A stretch of 45,524 nt of DNA from Acidobacteriota bacterium (GTDB lineage Bacteria > Acidobacteriota > Polarisedimenticolia > Gp22-AA2 > AA152): the NCBI GenBank assembly GCA_003222305.1, contig QHVQ01000009.1, forward strand, positions 1 to 45,524, in the 5' to 3' direction. The position numbers and the translations under genes were made by a program. The notes beneath the pieces were generated by a model. The model searched no databases, was not told where the DNA came from, and was given only the letters and a program-made list of their open reading frames with translations. This document shows, in pieces, positions 2,032 to 32,726 of this stretch. Position 1 is the stretch's first letter; every line of letters starts with the position of its first letter.

Positions 2032-2850
2032 TCAGGCTCCGTACAGTCGCTCGGCTCCCGCGTACACCTGCATCGTCCGTCCCCGGAGGAATCCCGCGAG
2101 CAGCATCCCGGCTTCCCTTGCCAGGTCCACCGAAAGGCTCGAGGCGCCAGAAATGCCCGCCAGGGCTGGAATCCCGGCCATGAGGGCCTTCTGGGTTATT
2201 TCGAAGGAGAGTCGCCCGCTCACAAGAAGCAGGTGAGCCTTCACCGGCACCCCCTCGTCGAGAAACGCAGAACCCACCACCTTGTCCACGGCGTTGTGTC
2301 GCCCCACATCTTCCATCAGCACCCGGAGACGGCCCTCCGGGGTGAACAGGGCCGCGGCGTGAAGGGCCCCCGTTTCGCAGAAGATTCCCTGGGAGCTCCG
2401 AAGCAGATCGGGAAGGGCATAAAGGACTTCCGGATCGAACCGAGACGGGTCGTTCAAGGAAGACGCAGCCTGCCGAACCGCATCGATGCTGGAGCGCCCG
2501 CAGATGCCACAGGAAGAGGAGACATAGAAACGTCGCTGCCACCCCTCATCGGGAGGCGGCGCCCCGGGGTCTGTGAGCACGTTCACCACGTTGCCTCGCC
2601 GATCCTCACCTTCCTCTTCACAGTGGACGATGGCACCCACTTGAAAGGCGCTCGTAAGAATCCCTTCGGTGAACAGGAAGCCAGCTGCCAGCTGGAAGTC
2701 GTGTCCTGGGGTCCGCATGGTCACGGCTACCGGCTTGCCGTTGAGCCGGATCTCGAGGGGCTCCTCTACGACGAGCGGATCTCGTCCTTTCAGGCGTTGG
2801 GTGCCATCCCAACGAACGGAGTCGACTCGACGTATGGGCTGCAGGCTCAT
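2032..2850 (-). CDS. fdhD: formate dehydrogenase accessory sulfurtransferase FdhD
   Basis: EEPLEIRLNGKPVAVTMRTPGHDFQLAAGFLFTEGI, SSCGICGRSSIDA, EDVGRHNAVDKVVG. Confidence 0.93.
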   Translation of the reverse strand: MSLQPIRRVDSVRWDGTQRLKGRDPLVVEEPLEIRLNGKPVAVTMRTPGHDFQLAAGFLFTEGILTSAFQVGAIVHCEEEGEDRRGNVVNVLTDPGAPPPDEGWQRRFYVSSSCGICGRSSIDAVRQAASSLNDPSRFDPEVLYALPDLLRSSQGIFCETGALHAAALFTPEGRLRVLMEDVGRHNAVDKVVGSAFLDEGVPVKAHLLLVSGRLSFEITQKALMAGIPALAGISGASSLSVDLAREAGMLLAGFLRGRTMQVYAGAERLYGA

Positions 2851-14215: not shown

Positions 14216-17083
14216 TTGGCGGCTTCTGGTAGCATCGGCCCGGGCAAATTCTCGAAGGGCCGCGCGCCCGAGGTCCCGGGAGCCAGCGCGTTGATCGTCT
14301 TCCTACTCTCCCACCGTACCGCCGCGATCTCGTGTCTCCTGCTCATCACCCTGCTCTCGTGCGGGTTCGTCGGATTGCTTCATGTCGATCCGGGGGTCGA
14401 GTCGCTGCTTCCAGCGGAAGGAAAGAACTTGCGTGTCCTTCGCGAATTCAACGCCACTTTCGCTTCCGACGAAATCATCGTGTTGGCGCTGCATTCCCCG
14501 CGGCTCTTCTCGACGGAGGGACTGAAGCGGCTGGACGGTCTGACCCGCGAAGCCGAGAGACTTCCCAACGTGACGAGGGTCCTCTCCCCGACCAACGCGA
14601 AGGATTTGGAGGGAGACGCTCTGGGGCCCTTTCCCCTGGTCCCCTACGAAAGAGTCGCGAAGGGAGAATGGTCTCCCGAGGAGCTGGGCCGACGACTCGC
14701 GGCCCATCCCCTCTTCGGCGGGCTGCTGGTCTCCTCCGACGCCTCGACCGCGGCGATCCTGATCGAGGTGAGGCGCCTGGAAGGGAATCCCAAGTACCGG
14801 GCTCGGCTGGTGGCGCAGATCCGACAGCTGGCTGCCGCCGGCGCCGCGGGAATGGAGGTTCATGTGGCCGGCATTCCTGTGGAAAAAGTGGACGTAGCCG
14901 ATTACGTGAAGCGCGAGCAGCGGATCTTCGCGCCCCTCATCTTCGGTCTGCTGGCCCTGGTCACCCTCCTGCTCTATCGGCATCCTGCAGGAATGTTGGT
15001 CCCCCTGGGTGTCGTGGCCGCCTCGCTGGTCTGGACGCTCGGTCTGTATGCGGCCGCGGGCCGTCCCTTGAACCCGGTCACCTCGCTCATCACGCCGGTG
15101 GTCCTGGTCGTTTCGGTGGCCGGGAGCATCCATTTCCTGAATCATTATCTCGGAGCCCGCGCCGAGGGACTCTGGCGAGAACCGGCCCTCGAACGGGCGT
15201 TCCGCGTAACCAGGGTTCCCTGCTTCAACGCCGCCTTCACGACCGCCATCGGTTTCGGCTCGCTGCTGGTGCTCCCCATCCCGGCCATTCGGGACTTCGG
15301 GATGTTCACCGCCGCGGGGGTGATGATTTCCTATTTGCTGACCATGGCCCTTACTCCTCTCCTGATTTCCTTGCTCCCGGATTTCCCTCCCCGAGTCACC
15401 CGCAAATTCAAGAGCGGGCCCATCGAGCGGGCCCTGCGTGCAACCATCCGAATCACCTGCCGGCATCCCCTCCTCGCCACCGCGGCCGCCGTGGCCGTGC
15501 TGACCGTCTCCGCGCTGGGCCTGTCCCGGATTCACACGGAAACGGATCTCATCCGGTCCCTCCGGCGCGACAGCCCACTCGCCCGGGCCACCCGGTTCAT
15601 CGACAGTCACCTGACCGGGGTGAATTCCCTAGAGATTCTCGTCCGCGGCGTTCCCCTCGACGATCCGGCGGCCCTGGCGAGGGTGGCCAGCTTCGAGGAG
15701 AAGGTCCGGAGCATGCCCGGCGTCCGCAAGGTCACCGGTCTGCCCGATCTGGTGTCACGGGTCAATCGGGCGCTCCACGAGGGTAACGACGACTTTGCAA
15801 AGTTGCCCGAGGGGCCTGAGGCCCGCGAGGATCTGGCGGACATCGGTCGCCTCTTGAAAGAGCAGGCCCCCGCCGAGCTGGCCCGCTTCGTGGCGCCGGG
15901 CCACGGGACGCTCCGGCTTGCGGCCAGGGTAACGGCCCTCGGTTCGGCGGCCTCCCAACAGCTCTTTGCGCGCATCCGGCGCGCCTCGACCCTCGCCGGG
16001 CTGCCCGGGATCGCTCTCACAGGAAACTTCGTCGTGCTTTCCGACATGTCCACCTCCCTGGTGTCCAATCAGATGCGCGGCCTCGCGCCGGCGCTGCTCC
16101 TGATCCTCGCCGCCATGGCCGTACAGTTGCGCTCCCTCCGACTGGGGCTCCTCAGCGCCATTCCCACGGGCGCGCCCGTGCTCATGACCTACGGGCTGAT
16201 GGGTTGGCTCGGCATCCCCCTTTCGGTTTCCACCGCCATGATCGCCAGCATCACCCTCGGGATGACCGATGACAACACGATCCACCTGCTGGCTCGCTTT
16301 CGGGAGGAGTTCGCACGGGATGGCGATTATGAGATCGCCCTGGCCGCGATGATGGACACGTCAGGGCGCGCCGTGCTCTTCTCGACCCTCACGGTGGCGG
16401 CGGGTTTCTGGGTCGGTGCTTTCAGCTCCTTCCTCCCCTCGGTGCATTTCGCGGTCCTTACCGGCCTCACCCTGCTCCTCGGGCTCCTCTGCGAAGCGGT
16501 GCTCCTCCCCTTGACGCTGATTCTCTTCAGGCCGCTCGGGAAGCCCGCCCTCCCAGGCGAGGCCCCAGGAAGCCGCGCCGCTCTTGCGATCCTCGCGTGG
16601 CTGCCGATGCTTTCCTTCGCCGGAACGGCAGCCTCCGCACCCCGGGCCGAGGTGCTTCTCAGGGACCAATACGGCAGGGCCGATGGGCCTGCGCGTCACG
16701 CGGGGATTCCTCTGCTCCTGCTCTATGGACAACCTCCGGATCTCCGGGGCATGAGGTCATGGGAGGTGAGGATCCTGGAGAAAGCGGGAAGCGGCTTCCA
16801 GGTCATGCGGGCTGTGGACGCCCGAGGCGTGAAGGGGAAAAGGACCGAGGCCGAGGTGAACCATCGCCTGCAGAGAAATGTCCCGCAAGAGATTGCCGTG
16901 TTGGTGGACTGGGACGGGGAGCTGGCGAGGGCCTACGCCCTTCCTGACCGGGGGCTCACCGTGACCGTTCTGGATTCCAAGGGTAAGGCCTGCGCGACCG
17001 TTTCAGGGCCCGTGCGGGACATGACGCTCACAAGGCTGCTGGACGCGCTCGCCCAGGTGCGGGCCAAAGGGGCGTGCCCATGA
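14216..17083 (+). CDS. MMPL/RND-family transporter with C-terminal redoxin-like domain
   Basis: Two RND-type repeats with TM clusters (SIHFLNHY..., ITLGMTDDNTIHLLARFREE); C-terminal ~150 aa with LLRDQYGR...LVDWDGELARAYALPDRGLTVTVLDSKG. Start uncertain. Confidence 0.85.
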   Translation: MAASGSIGPGKFSKGRAPEVPGASALIVFLLSHRTAAISCLLLITLLSCGFVGLLHVDPGVESLLPAEGKNLRVLREFNATFASDEIIVLALHSPRLFSTEGLKRLDGLTREAERLPNVTRVLSPTNAKDLEGDALGPFPLVPYERVAKGEWSPEELGRRLAAHPLFGGLLVSSDASTAAILIEVRRLEGNPKYRARLVAQIRQLAAAGAAGMEVHVAGIPVEKVDVADYVKREQRIFAPLIFGLLALVTLLLYRHPAGMLVPLGVVAASLVWTLGLYAAAGRPLNPVTSLITPVVLVVSVAGSIHFLNHYLGARAEGLWREPALERAFRVTRVPCFNAAFTTAIGFGSLLVLPIPAIRDFGMFTAAGVMISYLLTMALTPLLISLLPDFPPRVTRKFKSGPIERALRATIRITCRHPLLATAAAVAVLTVSALGLSRIHTETDLIRSLRRDSPLARATRFIDSHLTGVNSLEILVRGVPLDDPAALARVASFEEKVRSMPGVRKVTGLPDLVSRVNRALHEGNDDFAKLPEGPEAREDLADIGRLLKEQAPAELARFVAPGHGTLRLAARVTALGSAASQQLFARIRRASTLAGLPGIALTGNFVVLSDMSTSLVSNQMRGLAPALLLILAAMAVQLRSLRLGLLSAIPTGAPVLMTYGLMGWLGIPLSVSTAMIASITLGMTDDNTIHLLARFREEFARDGDYEIALAAMMDTSGRAVLFSTLTVAAGFWVGAFSSFLPSVHFAVLTGLTLLLGLLCEAVLLPLTLILFRPLGKPALPGEAPGSRAALAILAWLPMLSFAGTAASAPRAEVLLRDQYGRADGPARHAGIPLLLLYGQPPDLRGMRSWEVRILEKAGSGFQVMRAVDARGVKGKRTEAEVNHRLQRNVPQEIAVLVDWDGELARAYALPDRGLTVTVLDSKGKACATVSGPVRDMTLTRLLDALAQVRAKGACP

Positions 17084-18615
17084 AGATCCTGCTCGTCGCC
17101 ATGCCCGACTCCGCCTCCTGCTTCGACCACATCATGGAGCTCCCGAACCTGGCCCTGTGCTGCCTCGCCGGAAACCTGGAGGGCCTCCATGAAGTGCGGA
17201 TTCTGGATCTCGTGAAGCACCGCCGGGTGGCCGCCCAGGCGCTCGAGCGCCAGATGCGTGAGTTCTCCCCGGATCTCGTGGGCATCTCCGCCATGTCCTT
17301 TCAGATCGGCTCAGCGCGCAAGACGGCGGCGGTCTGCAAGGCCATCAAGCCCGACGTCCTCACCGTTCTGGGGGGCTACCACGCCACCATCATGTGGAAG
17401 GAGATCGGGGAAGGCTATGATCGGAATCTCTTCGATTATGTAGTTCGTGGCGAGGGAGAGACGATTTTCAACTCCCTGGTGAAGACGGTCCACTCGCACG
17501 GAGACCTTGATCGAATCTCCGGCCTTTCGTACCGCAGGGGCGGCGAGTACCGACATAATCCGCCGGCTCCCCTGCTGAATCTGGAGGGGGTGCGGCCGCC
17601 GCAGCGAAGCGGTCGAGTCTCGGGCAACTTTCTTTGGATGGGTCGCCCGTTCGACGTCTCCGAGACCAGCCGCGGATGTACCATGCCCTGTGGCTTCTGC
17701 AGCATCCGGCGGATGTACGGGAAGACCTTCCGACTCTATCCCGACGAACAGGTCGTGGCCGACCTTCGAGATGTCAAGGCCCGCGGCGGCAAGGGGGTGC
17801 TCTTCGTGGATGACAATATTACGCTGGACGGACCACGCCTCAAGAAGCTCTGCCAGCGATTCGAGCAGGAGAAGGTCAATGACCTATTCATCGTGATGCA
17901 GGCCAGTGTCTTCCCCATCGCCGCGGACCTGGAAATTGCGGAGGCCATGGCGCGGGGCGGTGTGAAGATGGTCTTCCTGGGAATCGAGAGCGGCGACGAG
18001 CGGAACCTAAGAGTTCTGGGAAAGACGAAACAGGCTCCGAAAACCCGCGCAGTGGTCCGGGCGCTCCGGGACGCGGGGATCATCGTCATCGGAGGCTTCA
18101 TCGTAGGAAACCCCGAGGATCGGGAAGAGGATGTCCGCGCCACTTACCGCTATGTGAAGAAGATTGGCGTCGATCACGGCATCGTCCAGTGCCTGACCCC
18201 TTACCCCAAGACGGAACTGAGGCGCCAGCTGCTGGAGCAAGGACTCGTGACCAACCCGGACGATTTGGATCGCTACAACGGCTTCATTCCAAACGTGCGG
18301 ACGAAGTATCTTTCGGAGAGAGACCTTGCCCGGATTATGACCGGCGCCGGCATCCGCCTCTACTGGGACCCCCAATACGTCCTGCAGAACGGCATCTGGA
18401 AGGCCTGCCCCGCTCAGGCTTTCTGGATGCTCTGGAACAACCTCAAGTACATCTTCACAGGCTACGCCGGCCGAATGTTTCTCTCCCGCCACCGCTTCGA
18501 GCCCAGCCTATCCCTCGACCTCCCGGACGACTTGCGCTCCCCTTCCTATTCCGAGATTCTCACCCCGGGCAAGGATCCTGTCTATGGTAGGGCGGCCGGG
18601 CCTCACCCCTTGTAG
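17080..18615 (+). CDS. B12-binding domain / radical SAM protein
   Basis: N-terminal cobalamin-binding-like fold; radical SAM motif SRGCTMPCGFCSIR (CxxxCxxC); ATG 17080 overlaps MMPL stop (ATGA). Confidence 0.9.
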   Translation: MKILLVAMPDSASCFDHIMELPNLALCCLAGNLEGLHEVRILDLVKHRRVAAQALERQMREFSPDLVGISAMSFQIGSARKTAAVCKAIKPDVLTVLGGYHATIMWKEIGEGYDRNLFDYVVRGEGETIFNSLVKTVHSHGDLDRISGLSYRRGGEYRHNPPAPLLNLEGVRPPQRSGRVSGNFLWMGRPFDVSETSRGCTMPCGFCSIRRMYGKTFRLYPDEQVVADLRDVKARGGKGVLFVDDNITLDGPRLKKLCQRFEQEKVNDLFIVMQASVFPIAADLEIAEAMARGGVKMVFLGIESGDERNLRVLGKTKQAPKTRAVVRALRDAGIIVIGGFIVGNPEDREEDVRATYRYVKKIGVDHGIVQCLTPYPKTELRRQLLEQGLVTNPDDLDRYNGFIPNVRTKYLSERDLARIMTGAGIRLYWDPQYVLQNGIWKACPAQAFWMLWNNLKYIFTGYAGRMFLSRHRFEPSLSLDLPDDLRSPSYSEILTPGKDPVYGRAAGPHPL

Positions 18616-29441: not shown

Positions 29442-29685
29442 GGCTCGTCATCTTGACTTGTTCCGGGGTATCGAGTCAAGGACAGGCGTGGCGGCGAGGG
29501 GAGAAGAATACGTGCCAGGCTCGCCGGCTCGTGTCGGAGCGGAATTCCTGGGAGCAGGGACCAGGCCGGGGGTCCCGGGCTGGAGCTGCACTGAGAAAAA
29601 TGAACCCGAACCACTCTGGGAGTGCTAGAATGTCCAGACTTCTCCTGCAGCGGTGCGGCCAGGATTCTCCTTTGGGACGGTGCGT

Positions 29686-29973
29686 ATGGAAGATTCGACG
29701 AGCGACCCCAAGAGCAAGATTCAGGAGCTGATCGATTATCAGATCAATCCGGCCGTGGCGGGACACGGGGGGGTCATCGAGCTCCTGGACTACAAGGATG
29801 GCGTGGTCTACCTGCGCATGGGGGGAGGCTGCCAGGGATGCGGCATGGCCAATGTCACCCTGAAGCAGGGGATCGAGCGGATGCTCCGCGAAGAGATCCC
29901 GGAAATCCTGCAGGTGGTGGACACCACCGATCATGCCGGCGGGACCAATCCCTATTATCAGCCCTCCAAGTAA
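29686..29973 (+). CDS. NifU C-terminal (Nfu)-like Fe-S scaffold protein
   Basis: INPAVAGHGGVIELLDYKDGVVYLRMGGGCQGCGMANVTLKQGIERML with CxxC; ATG 29686 preferred. Confidence 0.9.
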   Translation: MEDSTSDPKSKIQELIDYQINPAVAGHGGVIELLDYKDGVVYLRMGGGCQGCGMANVTLKQGIERMLREEIPEILQVVDTTDHAGGTNPYYQPSK

Positions 29974-30025: not shown

Positions 30026-31477
30026 ATGCGTCAGCCAGGCGGAATTCTCCTCGTCTCCTGCTATGAGCTGGGCCACCAGCCCCTCGGGCTTGCCCTTCCC
30101 CTGGGCTTTCTGGAAGCCGCAGGATTCCGCCCGGAGGCAGTCGATGTCTCGCGCGAGCCGCTAAATCGTGCGCGGATTGCGAGCGCCCGGCTGGCCGCCC
30201 TCTCCGTGCCGATGCATACCGCCTTGCGACTCGGTGTCCGGGTCGCCGGCCTCATCCGACAAGAAAACCCTTCCTGCCACATCTGCCTCCATGGCCATTA
30301 CGCTGCTCTTAATGCCGACTATCTCCTCAGCGGCCCGGCCGATTCCATCCTCGCGGGCGAATGCGAGGCGAGCCTGGTGGACCTTGCCTGCTCGCTGGAG
30401 GCGGGACGGGATCTCTCGGAGGTCTCGGGACTGTCCTTGCCACACCGGAGAGCCGCCCCGATCCGGCGCCGCCTGCGGTTCGTTGTGCCGAGTCGAGAGC
30501 GCCTCCGGCCGCTCGCCAATTACGCTTCGCTGGAAGAGGAGAGCGGGATTCGGATTGCCGGATGCGTGCAGGCCAGCCGCGGATGTCTGCACCTCTGCCG
30601 TCACTGTCCCATCCCCCCCGTCTACCAGGGTCGATTCTTCGTGATTCCTCGCGAGGTGGTGCTCGCGGACATCCGCAGGCAGGTGGAGCTGGGTGCGACT
30701 CATATCACTTTTGGAGATCCCGATTTCCTGAACGGTCCCGGACACTCCTTGGCGCTGGTGGCGGAGATGCACCGGCTCTTTCCCTTCCTCACTTTCGATT
30801 TCACTGCCAAGATCGAGCACCTCCTCAAGCACGCCTCCCTTCTCCCGAAGCTGAAGGACGCGGGGTGTCTTTTCGTGGTGTCGGCTGTGGAATCGCTCAG
30901 CGACCGGGTGCTGAACATTCTGGACAAGGGGCACACCCGTCGAGACGTGGAAACGGTGCTCGATCTGTTTCAGAGTGCACGCCTGACCCTGCGTCCGTCC
31001 CTGGTGCCTTTCACACCCTGGTCAACACCTTCCGACTACTCCGAGCTGCTGGATTTCGTGCAGGAGCGGGACCTCGTGGATGCGGTGGAGCCGGTGCAAT
31101 TCTCGGTCCGGCGGTTGATCCCTCCAGGCTCCGGTCTGCTGGACCAGCCCGCGATGTCCCCCCACCTGGGGGCGCTGGTCCCGGAATCGTTCAGCTACAC
31201 CTGGAAGCATCCGGATGAGCGGATGGATCGACTTCATCGCCGGGTGTCATCCGAGGTCGAGCAGGCGGCCCACCGACGCGAAGCGTCGGAAGAGACCTTT
31301 CTTCGGATTCGCAGAATCTGCTCGGAGATTATCGGAAGGACCGCTCCGGCAGCTCGGAGCATGACGGAGACTGTCCTGAGGCGCCACGTGCCCCGACTGA
31401 CCGAAAGCTGGTTTTGCTGAGCGGAGCCCACCGAGGGTCAGTTGGACCCTCTTCGGCGGGTAGACCGAGTGGTCTGA
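30026..31477 (+). CDS. CUAEP-tail B12-binding/radical SAM selenoprotein, Sec at TGA 31418-31420 (predicted residue 465 of 483)
   Basis: Radical SAM motif SRGCLHLCRHCPI (CxxxCxxC); frame reads ...TESWFC-TGA-AEPTEGQLDPLRRVDRVV-TGA, giving C-U-A-E-P. The ORF track stops at the TGA (29933..31420). Start ATG 30026 preferred. Confidence 0.88.
31426..31461 (+). promoter_or_regulatory. putative bacterial SECIS element
   Basis: GAGGGUC (31433-39) / GACCCUC (31445-51), loop AGUUG; lower stem CCC/GGG and CC/GG with 3-nt bulge; loop begins 20 nt after the UGA. Confidence 0.72.
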
Positions 31478-31487
31478 GCCGACGGTT

Positions 31488-32726
31488 TCATCGAATCACG
31501 ATTTCCAGACGACGATAGGCTTCCCGCAAGGCGGTCTCCGCGGCAGCGGGGTCGGTCGCGCGGGCAAAGATGAACCCGAGGTACCTGGCCCCCTCCGGCA
31601 GTGGCACCACCGATTGACCCGTCGGAATGCTCTGGACCACCTGTTCAATCCCCGGGATCGCCCTGGCCGACTCCATCCCCCCGAATCGTTTCAGAATGCC
31701 GCCCCGGGGGATCGGGATCATCATGACTCCCGCAGCCCGCCTTTCGCGCTCCAGAGACTCCAGATCCATTCCCAGGGCGTGGCGAATGATGAGCTCCTCC
31801 AACGACATCCCCGCCCCGAATCGCAGGGCGCGCGAGCAGAGTCCTCCCACGGAGCGCGCCGCCACTTCCAAAGGCCAGATCCCTTCCTCGTTCAATCTCA
31901 GTTCCGCGTGGAGGGGCCCTTCCCGCAGTCCCACAGCGAAGGCGGTTCGGGCCGTCATCTCGATAATGTGCCGTTGCCTCTCCTCCGAGAACCGGGAAGG
32001 GGTCACATAGATTGTCTCTTCAAAGAAGGGACCCTCCAGCGGATCCGGCTTGTCGAAAATCGCCAGCACCTTCAGCTCGCCTCCGACCAGCAGCCCCTCC
32101 ACAGCGACCTCGTCGCCCTGGATGTAGGATTCGACCAGAATCCATCCGGCGGCCTCCCCACCCTTCTTCAGGATTTCTGGATCTGCCAGCAGGCGCTTCA
32201 CCCGCTCGAAGGCCAGGGCAAAGCTCTCTCCATCATTCGCCCGTATCACGCCGCGGCTGGCCGAAAGGAACAGCGGCTTGAGCACGCAAGGGTAGCCGAC
32301 GTGCCGAGCCGCGATCCTCGGATCCTCTTCGGTGGAAAACTTCCAGAATTGCGGAACCGGGATGCCCGATTTCCGGAGCAGTTCGCGCGCCCGCAGCTTG
32401 TGTCGGGTAAGACGTACTGCTTCCCCCGGGTTGTGCGGAAGGCCGAGGGCCAGGGAGGCCTCGGCGGCTGTCACCGTGGTCTCGTCCTCCACTCCCACCA
32501 CTCCGTCCAGAGGATGTTCCCGCGCGAACTCAACGATTCGCCGAACGGCGGACGAGGAGTCCTTGAAATCCAGTGCGAGGGTGCCGCCCGGCGCGGCCTC
32601 CTCCAGGGTCTGGCGCTGATCGGATCCGACCACGACTTCCACGCCGAGGCGGATCGCTGCGCTCACGAAATCGGCGGCACGATAGGTGGTGACAGGCATG
32701 AGGAGGAGAATCCGGTAAGAGCTCAT
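31488..32726 (-). CDS. ATP-grasp domain protein
   Basis: HKLRARELLRKSGIPVPQFWKF, YPCVLKPLFLSASRGVI, WILVESYIQGDEVAVEGLL, HAELRLNEEGIWPLEVAARSVGG. Confidence 0.88.
   Translation of the reverse strand: MSSYRILLLMPVTTYRAADFVSAAIRLGVEVVVGSDQRQTLEEAAPGGTLALDFKDSSSAVRRIVEFAREHPLDGVVGVEDETTVTAAEASLALGLPHNPGEAVRLTRHKLRARELLRKSGIPVPQFWKFSTEEDPRIAARHVGYPCVLKPLFLSASRGVIRANDGESFALAFERVKRLLADPEILKKGGEAAGWILVESYIQGDEVAVEGLLVGGELKVLAIFDKPDPLEGPFFEETIYVTPSRFSEERQRHIIEMTARTAFAVGLREGPLHAELRLNEEGIWPLEVAARSVGGLCSRALRFGAGMSLEELIIRHALGMDLESLERERRAAGVMMIPIPRGGILKRFGGMESARAIPGIEQVVQSIPTGQSVVPLPEGARYLGFIFARATDPAAAETALREAYRRLEIVIR

What the first reader, a model, noticed from the sequence alone, without database searches (positions are those of the whole stretch)
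30026..31477. Hidden selenoprotein: B12/radical SAM protein with C-terminal C-Sec-A-E-P tail
The ORF track ends this protein at ...RLTESWFC with TGA at 31418-31420. The same frame continues GCG GAG CCC ACC GAG GGT CAG TTG GAC CCT CTT CGG CGG GTA GAC CGA GTG GTC TGA. Reading TGA as selenocysteine gives WFC-U-AEPTEGQLDPLRRVDRVV. The CUAEP pentapeptide matches the defining tail of the CUAEP/CCAEP-tail radical SAM family as I recall it, in which Cys replaces Sec in some members. The protein has a CxxxCxxC radical SAM motif and an N-terminal B12-binding-like region. Standard gene callers would cut the last 19 residues including the putative redox motif. I know of no established biochemical function for this family.
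Basis: partly seen in the sequence, partly recalled or inferred. Interest (0 to 1): 0.93.

Follow-up and report, generated by a model that had tools for sequence, protein, structure and literature searches.

The report
Truncation-prone radical SAM selenoprotein, CUAEP tail
The gene really does encode a radical-chemistry enzyme that reads one UGA "stop" as selenocysteine near its end; it belongs to a family already named in a public database, and here it turns out to travel almost always with an amino-acid-joining enzyme, which hints at a still unknown small-molecule pathway.

Summary
Confirmed. The ORF at 30026-31477 continues in frame through TGA 31418-31420 as WFC-U-AEPTEGQLDPLRRVDRVV. It scores 655 bits (cut-off 500) on NCBIfam NF040546, "CUAEP/CCAEP-tail radical SAM (seleno)protein", tail included. 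Of 80 relatives from many phyla, 53 have TGA and 24 TGT/TGC at the same column before AEP; three more carry CUSEP/CCSEP. A bSECIS-type hairpin follows the TGA here and in nearly all TGA relatives, above synonymous-codon expectation, and is absent from Cys relatives. The genome holds tRNA-Sec, SelA (split between contigs), SelB and SelD. The family and its selenoprotein status were already recorded; no paper I could read describes it. Beyond the finding: it is homologous to ArsL (arsinothricin synthesis; aminocarboxypropyl transfer to As(III) proposed), which also ends in a vicinal Cys pair; and an L-amino-acid-ligase-type ATP-grasp without a specific family name lies next to it (31488-32726) and occurs in 49 of 50 genomes with the enzyme, against 4 of 247 without. 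Best mechanism, inferred only: the Cys-Sec tail holds a soft substrate atom (perhaps As(III)) for radical C-X bond formation, and the ligase couples the amino-acid product. Cobalamin use is not supported.

The parts
30026..31477 (+). rSAM_CUAEP selenoprotein gene (483 aa with Sec465; ends at 31420 if TGA is read as stop)
   Evidence: NF040546 654.8 bits, cut-off 500; C187xxxC191xxC194 and C464-U465-AEP invariant or nearly so in 78 aligned relatives
31418..31420 (+). Sec codon TGA
   Evidence: same column is TGA in 53 and TGY in 24 of 80 relatives; SelA, SelB, SelD and tRNA-Sec in the genome
31433..31451 (+). putative bSECIS hairpin: 7-bp stem GAGGGUC/GACCCUC, loop AGUUG, 19 nt between UGA and loop
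   Evidence: 7 pairs versus 2.2 expected under synonymous codon shuffling, p about 0.015; mean 6.2 versus 3.1 in TGA relatives, 2.2 versus 2.1 in Cys relatives; two-sided changes in the stem; -11.4 kcal/mol
31421..31474 (+). coding tail AEPTEGQLDPLRRVDRVV lost in standard annotation
   Evidence: AEP and following T..Q conserved in relatives
31488..32726 (-). ATP-grasp enzyme of the L-amino-acid-ligase type, conserved partner of the radical SAM gene
   Evidence: ATP-grasp_4, LAL_C2, ATPgrasp_N; no NCBIfam model over its cut-off; best PDB relative 3vot L-amino acid ligase BL00235 E 9e-64; co-occurrence 49/50
29653..29973 (+). Nfu/NifU-type Fe-S carrier upstream, frequent neighbour
   Evidence: PF01106 E 1e-25; a NifU-domain gene within 4.5 kb in 39 of 80 loci

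Best explanation
The gene encodes a genuine selenoprotein of the rSAM_CUAEP family: UGA 31418-31420 is read as selenocysteine with the help of a bSECIS hairpin directly downstream. Mechanism (inferred): the N-terminal Rossmann domain and radical SAM barrel, with one [4Fe-4S] cluster on C187/C191/C194 (possibly supplied by the neighbouring Nfu protein), cleave SAM; the mobile C-terminal Cys-Sec pair holds a soft, electrophilic atom of the substrate (As(III) is the likeliest, by analogy with ArsL and its CC tail) or an activated selenium, sulfur or metal species in the active site, so that a SAM-derived radical (in ArsL's proposed reaction the 3-amino-3-carboxypropyl group) is joined to it. The product would be an amino acid, which the adjacent L-amino-acid-ligase-type ATP-grasp enzyme couples to a second amino acid. 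Shown by sequence: family identity, Sec evidence, two-gene module (about 0.95 for the selenoprotein identity). Inferred: chemistry, substrate, product (about 0.4). The confidence given is for the statement as a whole.
For: NF040546 full-length match with tail. Sec/Cys exchange at one column, with at least four changes on a tree of 78 (two forced by well-supported branches). Hairpin meets the published bSECIS constraints (loop 3-9 nt, stem 4-16 bp, G in first two loop positions, spacing 16-37 nt, MFE <= -7.5; here) and is specific to TGA members. Sec machinery present. 36 of 39 TGA-bearing genomes in the phylum sample have SelB at the threshold used, and the other three have a tRNA-Sec hit over the Rfam cut-off. 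Second-best NCBIfam family is ArsL, 279.7 bits, residues 7-418; three ArsL proteins share 31-33% identity, the cluster motif and end in RCCLKC; aminocarboxypropyl transfer by ArsL is proposed in PMC8552651. ATP-grasp partner: 49 of 50 rSAM genomes versus 4 of 247 others, Fisher p 4e-50, 32 of 36 checked pairs within 3 kb; adjacent in 41 of 80 loci over several phyla. ArsL clusters of Alicyclobacillus and Priestia also hold an ATP-grasp gene, distantly similar.
Against: No biochemistry exists for the family in the papers I could read. The protein is below the ArsL cut-off (279.7 versus 450) and lacks the RCCLKC ending. arsM, arsQ, arsN1 and arsR homologues are not conserved neighbours: isolated hits only in 80 loci. 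The ATP-grasp of Gram-positive ArsL clusters is only 24-25% identical, as any two members of this superfamily might be. AlphaFold coordinates could not be read, and the tail after residue 467 is of low confidence, so its closeness to the cluster was not measured. Sec insertion itself is not shown.
Confidence: 0.45

Rival explanations
1. The Cys-Sec pair is a redox or hydrogen-atom-donor tail: the enzyme does classical 5'-deoxyadenosyl-radical chemistry on a small organic molecule, and the selenol quenches the product radical or re-reduces the active site, as the C-terminal Gly-Cys-Sec-Gly does in thioredoxin reductase.
For: Vicinal Cys-Sec is a classic redox pair (own knowledge); Cys can replace Sec; closest solved fold is the 1,2-diol dehydratase AprD4, TM 0.66-0.67.
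Against: The nearest characterised sequence relative, ArsL, with a CC tail, is proposed to make a C-As bond, not to do redox chemistry; the tail has a nearly invariant AEP after the pair, unlike a free redox tail.
Confidence: 0.3
2. A cobalamin-dependent radical SAM methyltransferase whose tail binds the substrate or the corrin.
For: N-terminal domain resembles the B12-binding fold (Pfam 23.1 bits; Foldseek hits to TsrM, OxsB, MgmA); many NCBIfam side-hits are B12 radical SAM families.
Against: Below the Pfam cut-off; no DxHxxG motif seen in the N-terminal domain; ArsL, the closest relative, and AprD4, the closest fold, are not known to use cobalamin (own knowledge).
Confidence: 0.15
3. TGA is an ordinary stop and the conserved tail is a coincidence or is made only by low-level readthrough.
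For: Public annotation ends there, for example the Thermomicrobium roseum protein annotated to WFC.
Against: Cys codons at the same column in 24 relatives, conserved tail, SECIS hairpin restricted to TGA members, Sec machinery in the genome.
Confidence: 0.02

Closest known systems
NCBIfam NF040546 rSAM_CUAEP, CUAEP/CCAEP-tail radical SAM (seleno)protein
   Same: Full-length profile match above cut-off, tail motif, Sec/Cys exchange
   Different: Nothing found that sets this member apart; the ATP-grasp partner and the TGA-specific hairpin are described here, not in the family name
ArsL (NCBIfam NF040542, RCCLKC-tail radical SAM; arsinothricin biosynthesis)
   Same: Homologous over residues 7-418, CxxxCxxC, many shared invariant positions, vicinal Cys pair near the C-terminus; some ArsL clusters also hold an ATP-grasp gene
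   Different: Score under the ArsL cut-off; about 45 extra residues before the tail; CUAEP in place of RCCLKC; no conserved ars genes nearby
AprD4 radical SAM diol dehydratase (PDB 6fd2)
   Same: Closest solved fold, E 3e-20, TM 0.66-0.67
   Different: 18-19% identity; different chemistry; no Cys-Sec tail known to me
L-amino acid ligases BL00235 (3vot) and BacD (3vmm), for the partner gene
   Same: ATP-grasp with LAL_C2 domain, E 9e-64 to BL00235
   Different: Under every NCBIfam cut-off; tied to a radical SAM selenoprotein

Membership tests
NF040546 rSAM_CUAEP | Profile score at or above 500 bits over full length | tested here: met
   654.8 bits, 1-467 of 468
NF040546 rSAM_CUAEP | C-terminal C[U/C]AEP tail | tested here: met
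   CUAEP at 464-468
NF040546 rSAM_CUAEP | CxxxCxxC radical SAM motif | tested here: met
   C187, C191, C194 invariant
Bacterial selenoproteins | Sec machinery in the genome | tested here: met
   tRNA-Sec 75.1 bits; SelB 339; SelD 364; SelA 404 + 116 on two contigs
Bacterial selenoproteins | bSECIS hairpin after UGA: loop 3-9 nt, stem 4-16 bp, G in first two loop positions, spacing 16-37 nt, MFE <= -7.5 | tested here: met
   loop 5, stem 7, loop AGUUG, spacing 19 nt, -11.4 to -13 kcal/mol
Bacterial selenoproteins | Cys homologues at the Sec column | tested here: met
   24 of 80 relatives
Bacterial selenoproteins | Sec shown in the protein | not testable with these tools
   needs 75Se labelling or mass spectrometry
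ArsL (NF040542) | Profile score at or above 450 bits | tested here: not met
   279.7 bits
ArsL (NF040542) | RCCLKC C-terminus | tested here: not met
   CUAEP tail instead
ArsL (NF040542) | arsM/arsQ/arsN1 neighbours | tested here: not met
   not conserved in 80 loci
ArsL (NF040542) | 3-amino-3-carboxypropyl transfer from SAM to As(III) | not testable with these tools
   needs enzyme assay
Cobalamin-binding radical SAM enzymes | B12-binding domain above Pfam cut-off | tested here: not met
   23.1 versus 32.1 bits
Cobalamin-binding radical SAM enzymes | Rossmann-type N-terminal fold followed by radical SAM barrel | tested here: met
   AlphaFold pLDDT 91; Foldseek hits to TsrM, OxsB, MgmA

The most novel reading that the evidence does not exclude
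The CUAEP radical SAM enzyme and its dedicated ATP-grasp ligase form a widespread, undescribed pathway (Acidobacteriota, Rokubacteria, Nitrospirota, Chloroflexota, Planctomycetota and others) that makes an aminocarboxypropyl-heteroatom amino acid (organoarsenic or similar) and turns it into a dipeptide, with selenocysteine serving as substrate ligand in C-heteroatom bond formation rather than as a redox residue.
Probability: 0.25. Interest if true: 0.8.

Novelty: new member of a known kind. Interest (0 to 1): 0.5.

Why it matters
The gene is annotated truncated by default, and the lost piece holds the most conserved part of the family's C-terminus; the same truncation is visible in the annotated type-strain record of Thermomicrobium roseum. 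The near-perfect pairing with an L-amino-acid-ligase-type ATP-grasp enzyme gives a concrete, testable handle on a radical SAM selenoprotein family for which I found no published function. If selenium here binds a substrate atom for radical bond formation, that would be an unusual role for selenocysteine.

Tried and rejected
Papers by Haft and colleagues on new selenoprotein families (PMC12013261, PMC9879109) are not in the library, so I cannot exclude that the family or its neighbours are discussed there; the 2026 review of 119 selenoprotein families does not contain the strings CUAEP or NF040546 in its main text, and two library searches for these found nothing. Arsenic genes as conserved neighbours: rejected. 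First pass of neighbour clusters mixed in antisense ORFs of high-GC genes, so counts were redone with tblastn. Single-sequence folding of the window hairpin alone is not striking (z -1.5); the comparative tests carry the SECIS claim. Tail position relative to the Fe-S cluster: not measured, no coordinates are given out. PDB profile search finds only distant radical SAM enzymes. Three TGA genomes without a SelB hit at the strict threshold have a tRNA-Sec hit over the Rfam cut-off, one of them (G110, 49.2 bits against 47) only just, so no clear counterexample.

Full report
OBSERVATION. The sequence at 31415-31477 reads TGC TGA GCG GAG CCC ... GTC TGA exactly as reported. Translated with TGA as U, 30026-31474 gives a 483-residue protein with ...RLTESWFC-U-AEPTEGQLDPLRRVDRVV.

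FAMILY. NCBIfam NF040546 (CUAEP/CCAEP-tail radical SAM (seleno)protein) matches residues 7-474 at 654.8 bits, cut-off 500. Pfam finds Radical_SAM above and B12-binding below its cut-off. A scan of 85,000 species genomes returned 80 relatives at 47-67% identity (more exist). Read through TGA, 77 carry C[U/C]AEP in frame: 53 CUAEP and 24 CCAEP; the other three carry CUSEP or CCSEP. Across 78 aligned proteins, E460, W462, F463, C464, the Sec/Cys column, E467 and P468 are invariant, as are the three cluster cysteines. On a tree the Sec/Cys state changes at least four times, at least two of these forced by well-supported branches.

SELENOCYSTEINE. The window's genome (2.8 Mb, 87% complete) has tRNA-Sec over the Rfam cut-off, called tRNA-SeC(tca) by ARAGORN as well, SelB, SelD, itself with an in-frame TGA, and SelA in two pieces on two contigs, one of them starting at a contig end. 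The published bSECIS model (PMC13188914) asks for a 3-9 nt loop, a 4-16 bp stem, a G in the first two loop positions, 16-37 nt from UGA to loop and an energy of -7.5 kcal/mol or less. Here: loop AGUUG, 7 bp, G second, 19 nt, -11.4 to -13. Under synonymous codon shuffling the window's hairpin keeps 2.2 pairs on average against 7 observed (p about 0.015). In 53 TGA members the mean is 6.2 observed against 3.1 expected; in 24 Cys members 2.2 against 2.1. The stem changes on both sides: pair 20-28 is U-A in 16 and C-G in 15 sequences, pair 17-31 G-C in 26 and A-U in 6 (33 sequences with the 5-nt loop; 18 others have a 4-nt loop AGUU). Of 39 phylum genomes whose copy holds the TGA, 36 have SelB at E 1e-60 and the other three have a tRNA-Sec hit over the Rfam cut-off, one of them only barely. 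SelB is common in this phylum (196 of 297), so this last point is consistent rather than strong.

PARTNER GENES. The gene that ends 10 bp downstream on the other strand (31488-32726) is an ATP-grasp enzyme with an L-amino-acid-ligase C-terminal domain, above no NCBIfam cut-off, closest in the PDB to L-amino acid ligase BL00235. It is a neighbour in 41 of 80 loci and a NifU-domain gene in 39, although many contigs are short. In 297 genomes of the phylum, 50 have the radical SAM gene (47 over the cut-off, 3 split or partial) and 53 the ATP-grasp gene; 49 have both (Fisher p 4e-50; relatedness of genomes not corrected for) and 32 of 36 checked pairs lie within 3 kb, in convergent or co-directional order. 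That varied order with kept adjacency argues for a functional link. In Nitrospirota a DUF169-like gene and a small conserved gene join the set (the DUF169 name is my own reading of the sequence, not a profile hit).

WHAT IT RESEMBLES. The second-best family is ArsL, 279.7 bits against a cut-off of 450. ArsL proteins from Alicyclobacillus, Pseudomonas and Priestia plasmids align end to end at 31-33% and finish in RCCLKC. ArsL is proposed to transfer 3-amino-3-carboxypropyl from SAM to As(III) (PMC8552651). Two of these three ArsL clusters also hold an ATP-grasp gene, 24-25% identical to the one here, which is no more than the superfamily as a whole might show. Conserved ars genes are not found near CUAEP genes, so arsenic is a guess from homology, not from context. 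The predicted structure (mean pLDDT 91) is closest to AprD4, then to cobalamin enzymes TsrM, MgmA and OxsB; the tail is of low confidence from residue 468 on and its place could not be measured.

MECHANISM AND STATUS. Shown by sequence: family, Sec codon with SECIS and machinery, two-gene module. Inferred: one [4Fe-4S] cluster, tail as ligand or redox partner, C-heteroatom bond formation, ligation of the product. I give about 0.95 that the protein is a selenoprotein of this family and about 0.4 to the tail-as-ligand plus ligase mechanism.

NOVELTY. NCBIfam already names both family and selenoprotein status, so this is a new member of a known kind. The ATP-grasp pairing and the TGA-specific hairpin were not found in any text I could read, but the two most relevant papers were not available.

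Noticed in passing
L141:7953-9389 (Thermomicrobium roseum DSM 5159 megaplasmid, NC_011961.1): The annotated CUAEP/CCAEP-tail protein WP_012643191 stops at WFC, but the DNA goes on TGA GCG GAG CCG ... with a strong hairpin (GGACCC GTC GGGTCC), so this cultured type strain's protein is probably truncated in the annotation too.
   Followed up: partly
G000:C21:16782-17708 (window's own genome): SelD of this genome is itself a likely selenoprotein: one in-frame TGA inside the profile match.
   Followed up: no
L017, L020, L026, L037, L042, L067, L075 (Nitrospirota loci): In Nitrospirota with the Cys form, a DUF169-like gene, the ATP-grasp gene and a small conserved protein (MGEV...) regularly accompany the radical SAM gene.
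   Followed up: partly
L033, L058, L073, L076, L085, L087 (Chloroflexota loci): A formyltransferase-like gene (by eye, no profile run) sits upstream of the radical SAM gene in Chloroflexota, where no NifU gene is found nearby.
   Followed up: no
G017, G278 (phylum genomes): Two fairly complete genomes hold the ATP-grasp partner without a radical SAM hit of this family; the reason is open.
   Followed up: no
window 17074-18615 (+): Second B12-binding-domain radical SAM gene, BchE/HpnR-like but under every NCBIfam cut-off, with a clear B12-binding domain.
   Followed up: no
window 2032-2850 (-): FdhD, formate dehydrogenase accessory sulfurtransferase; formate dehydrogenase is a common selenoprotein, not looked for here.
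   Followed up: no
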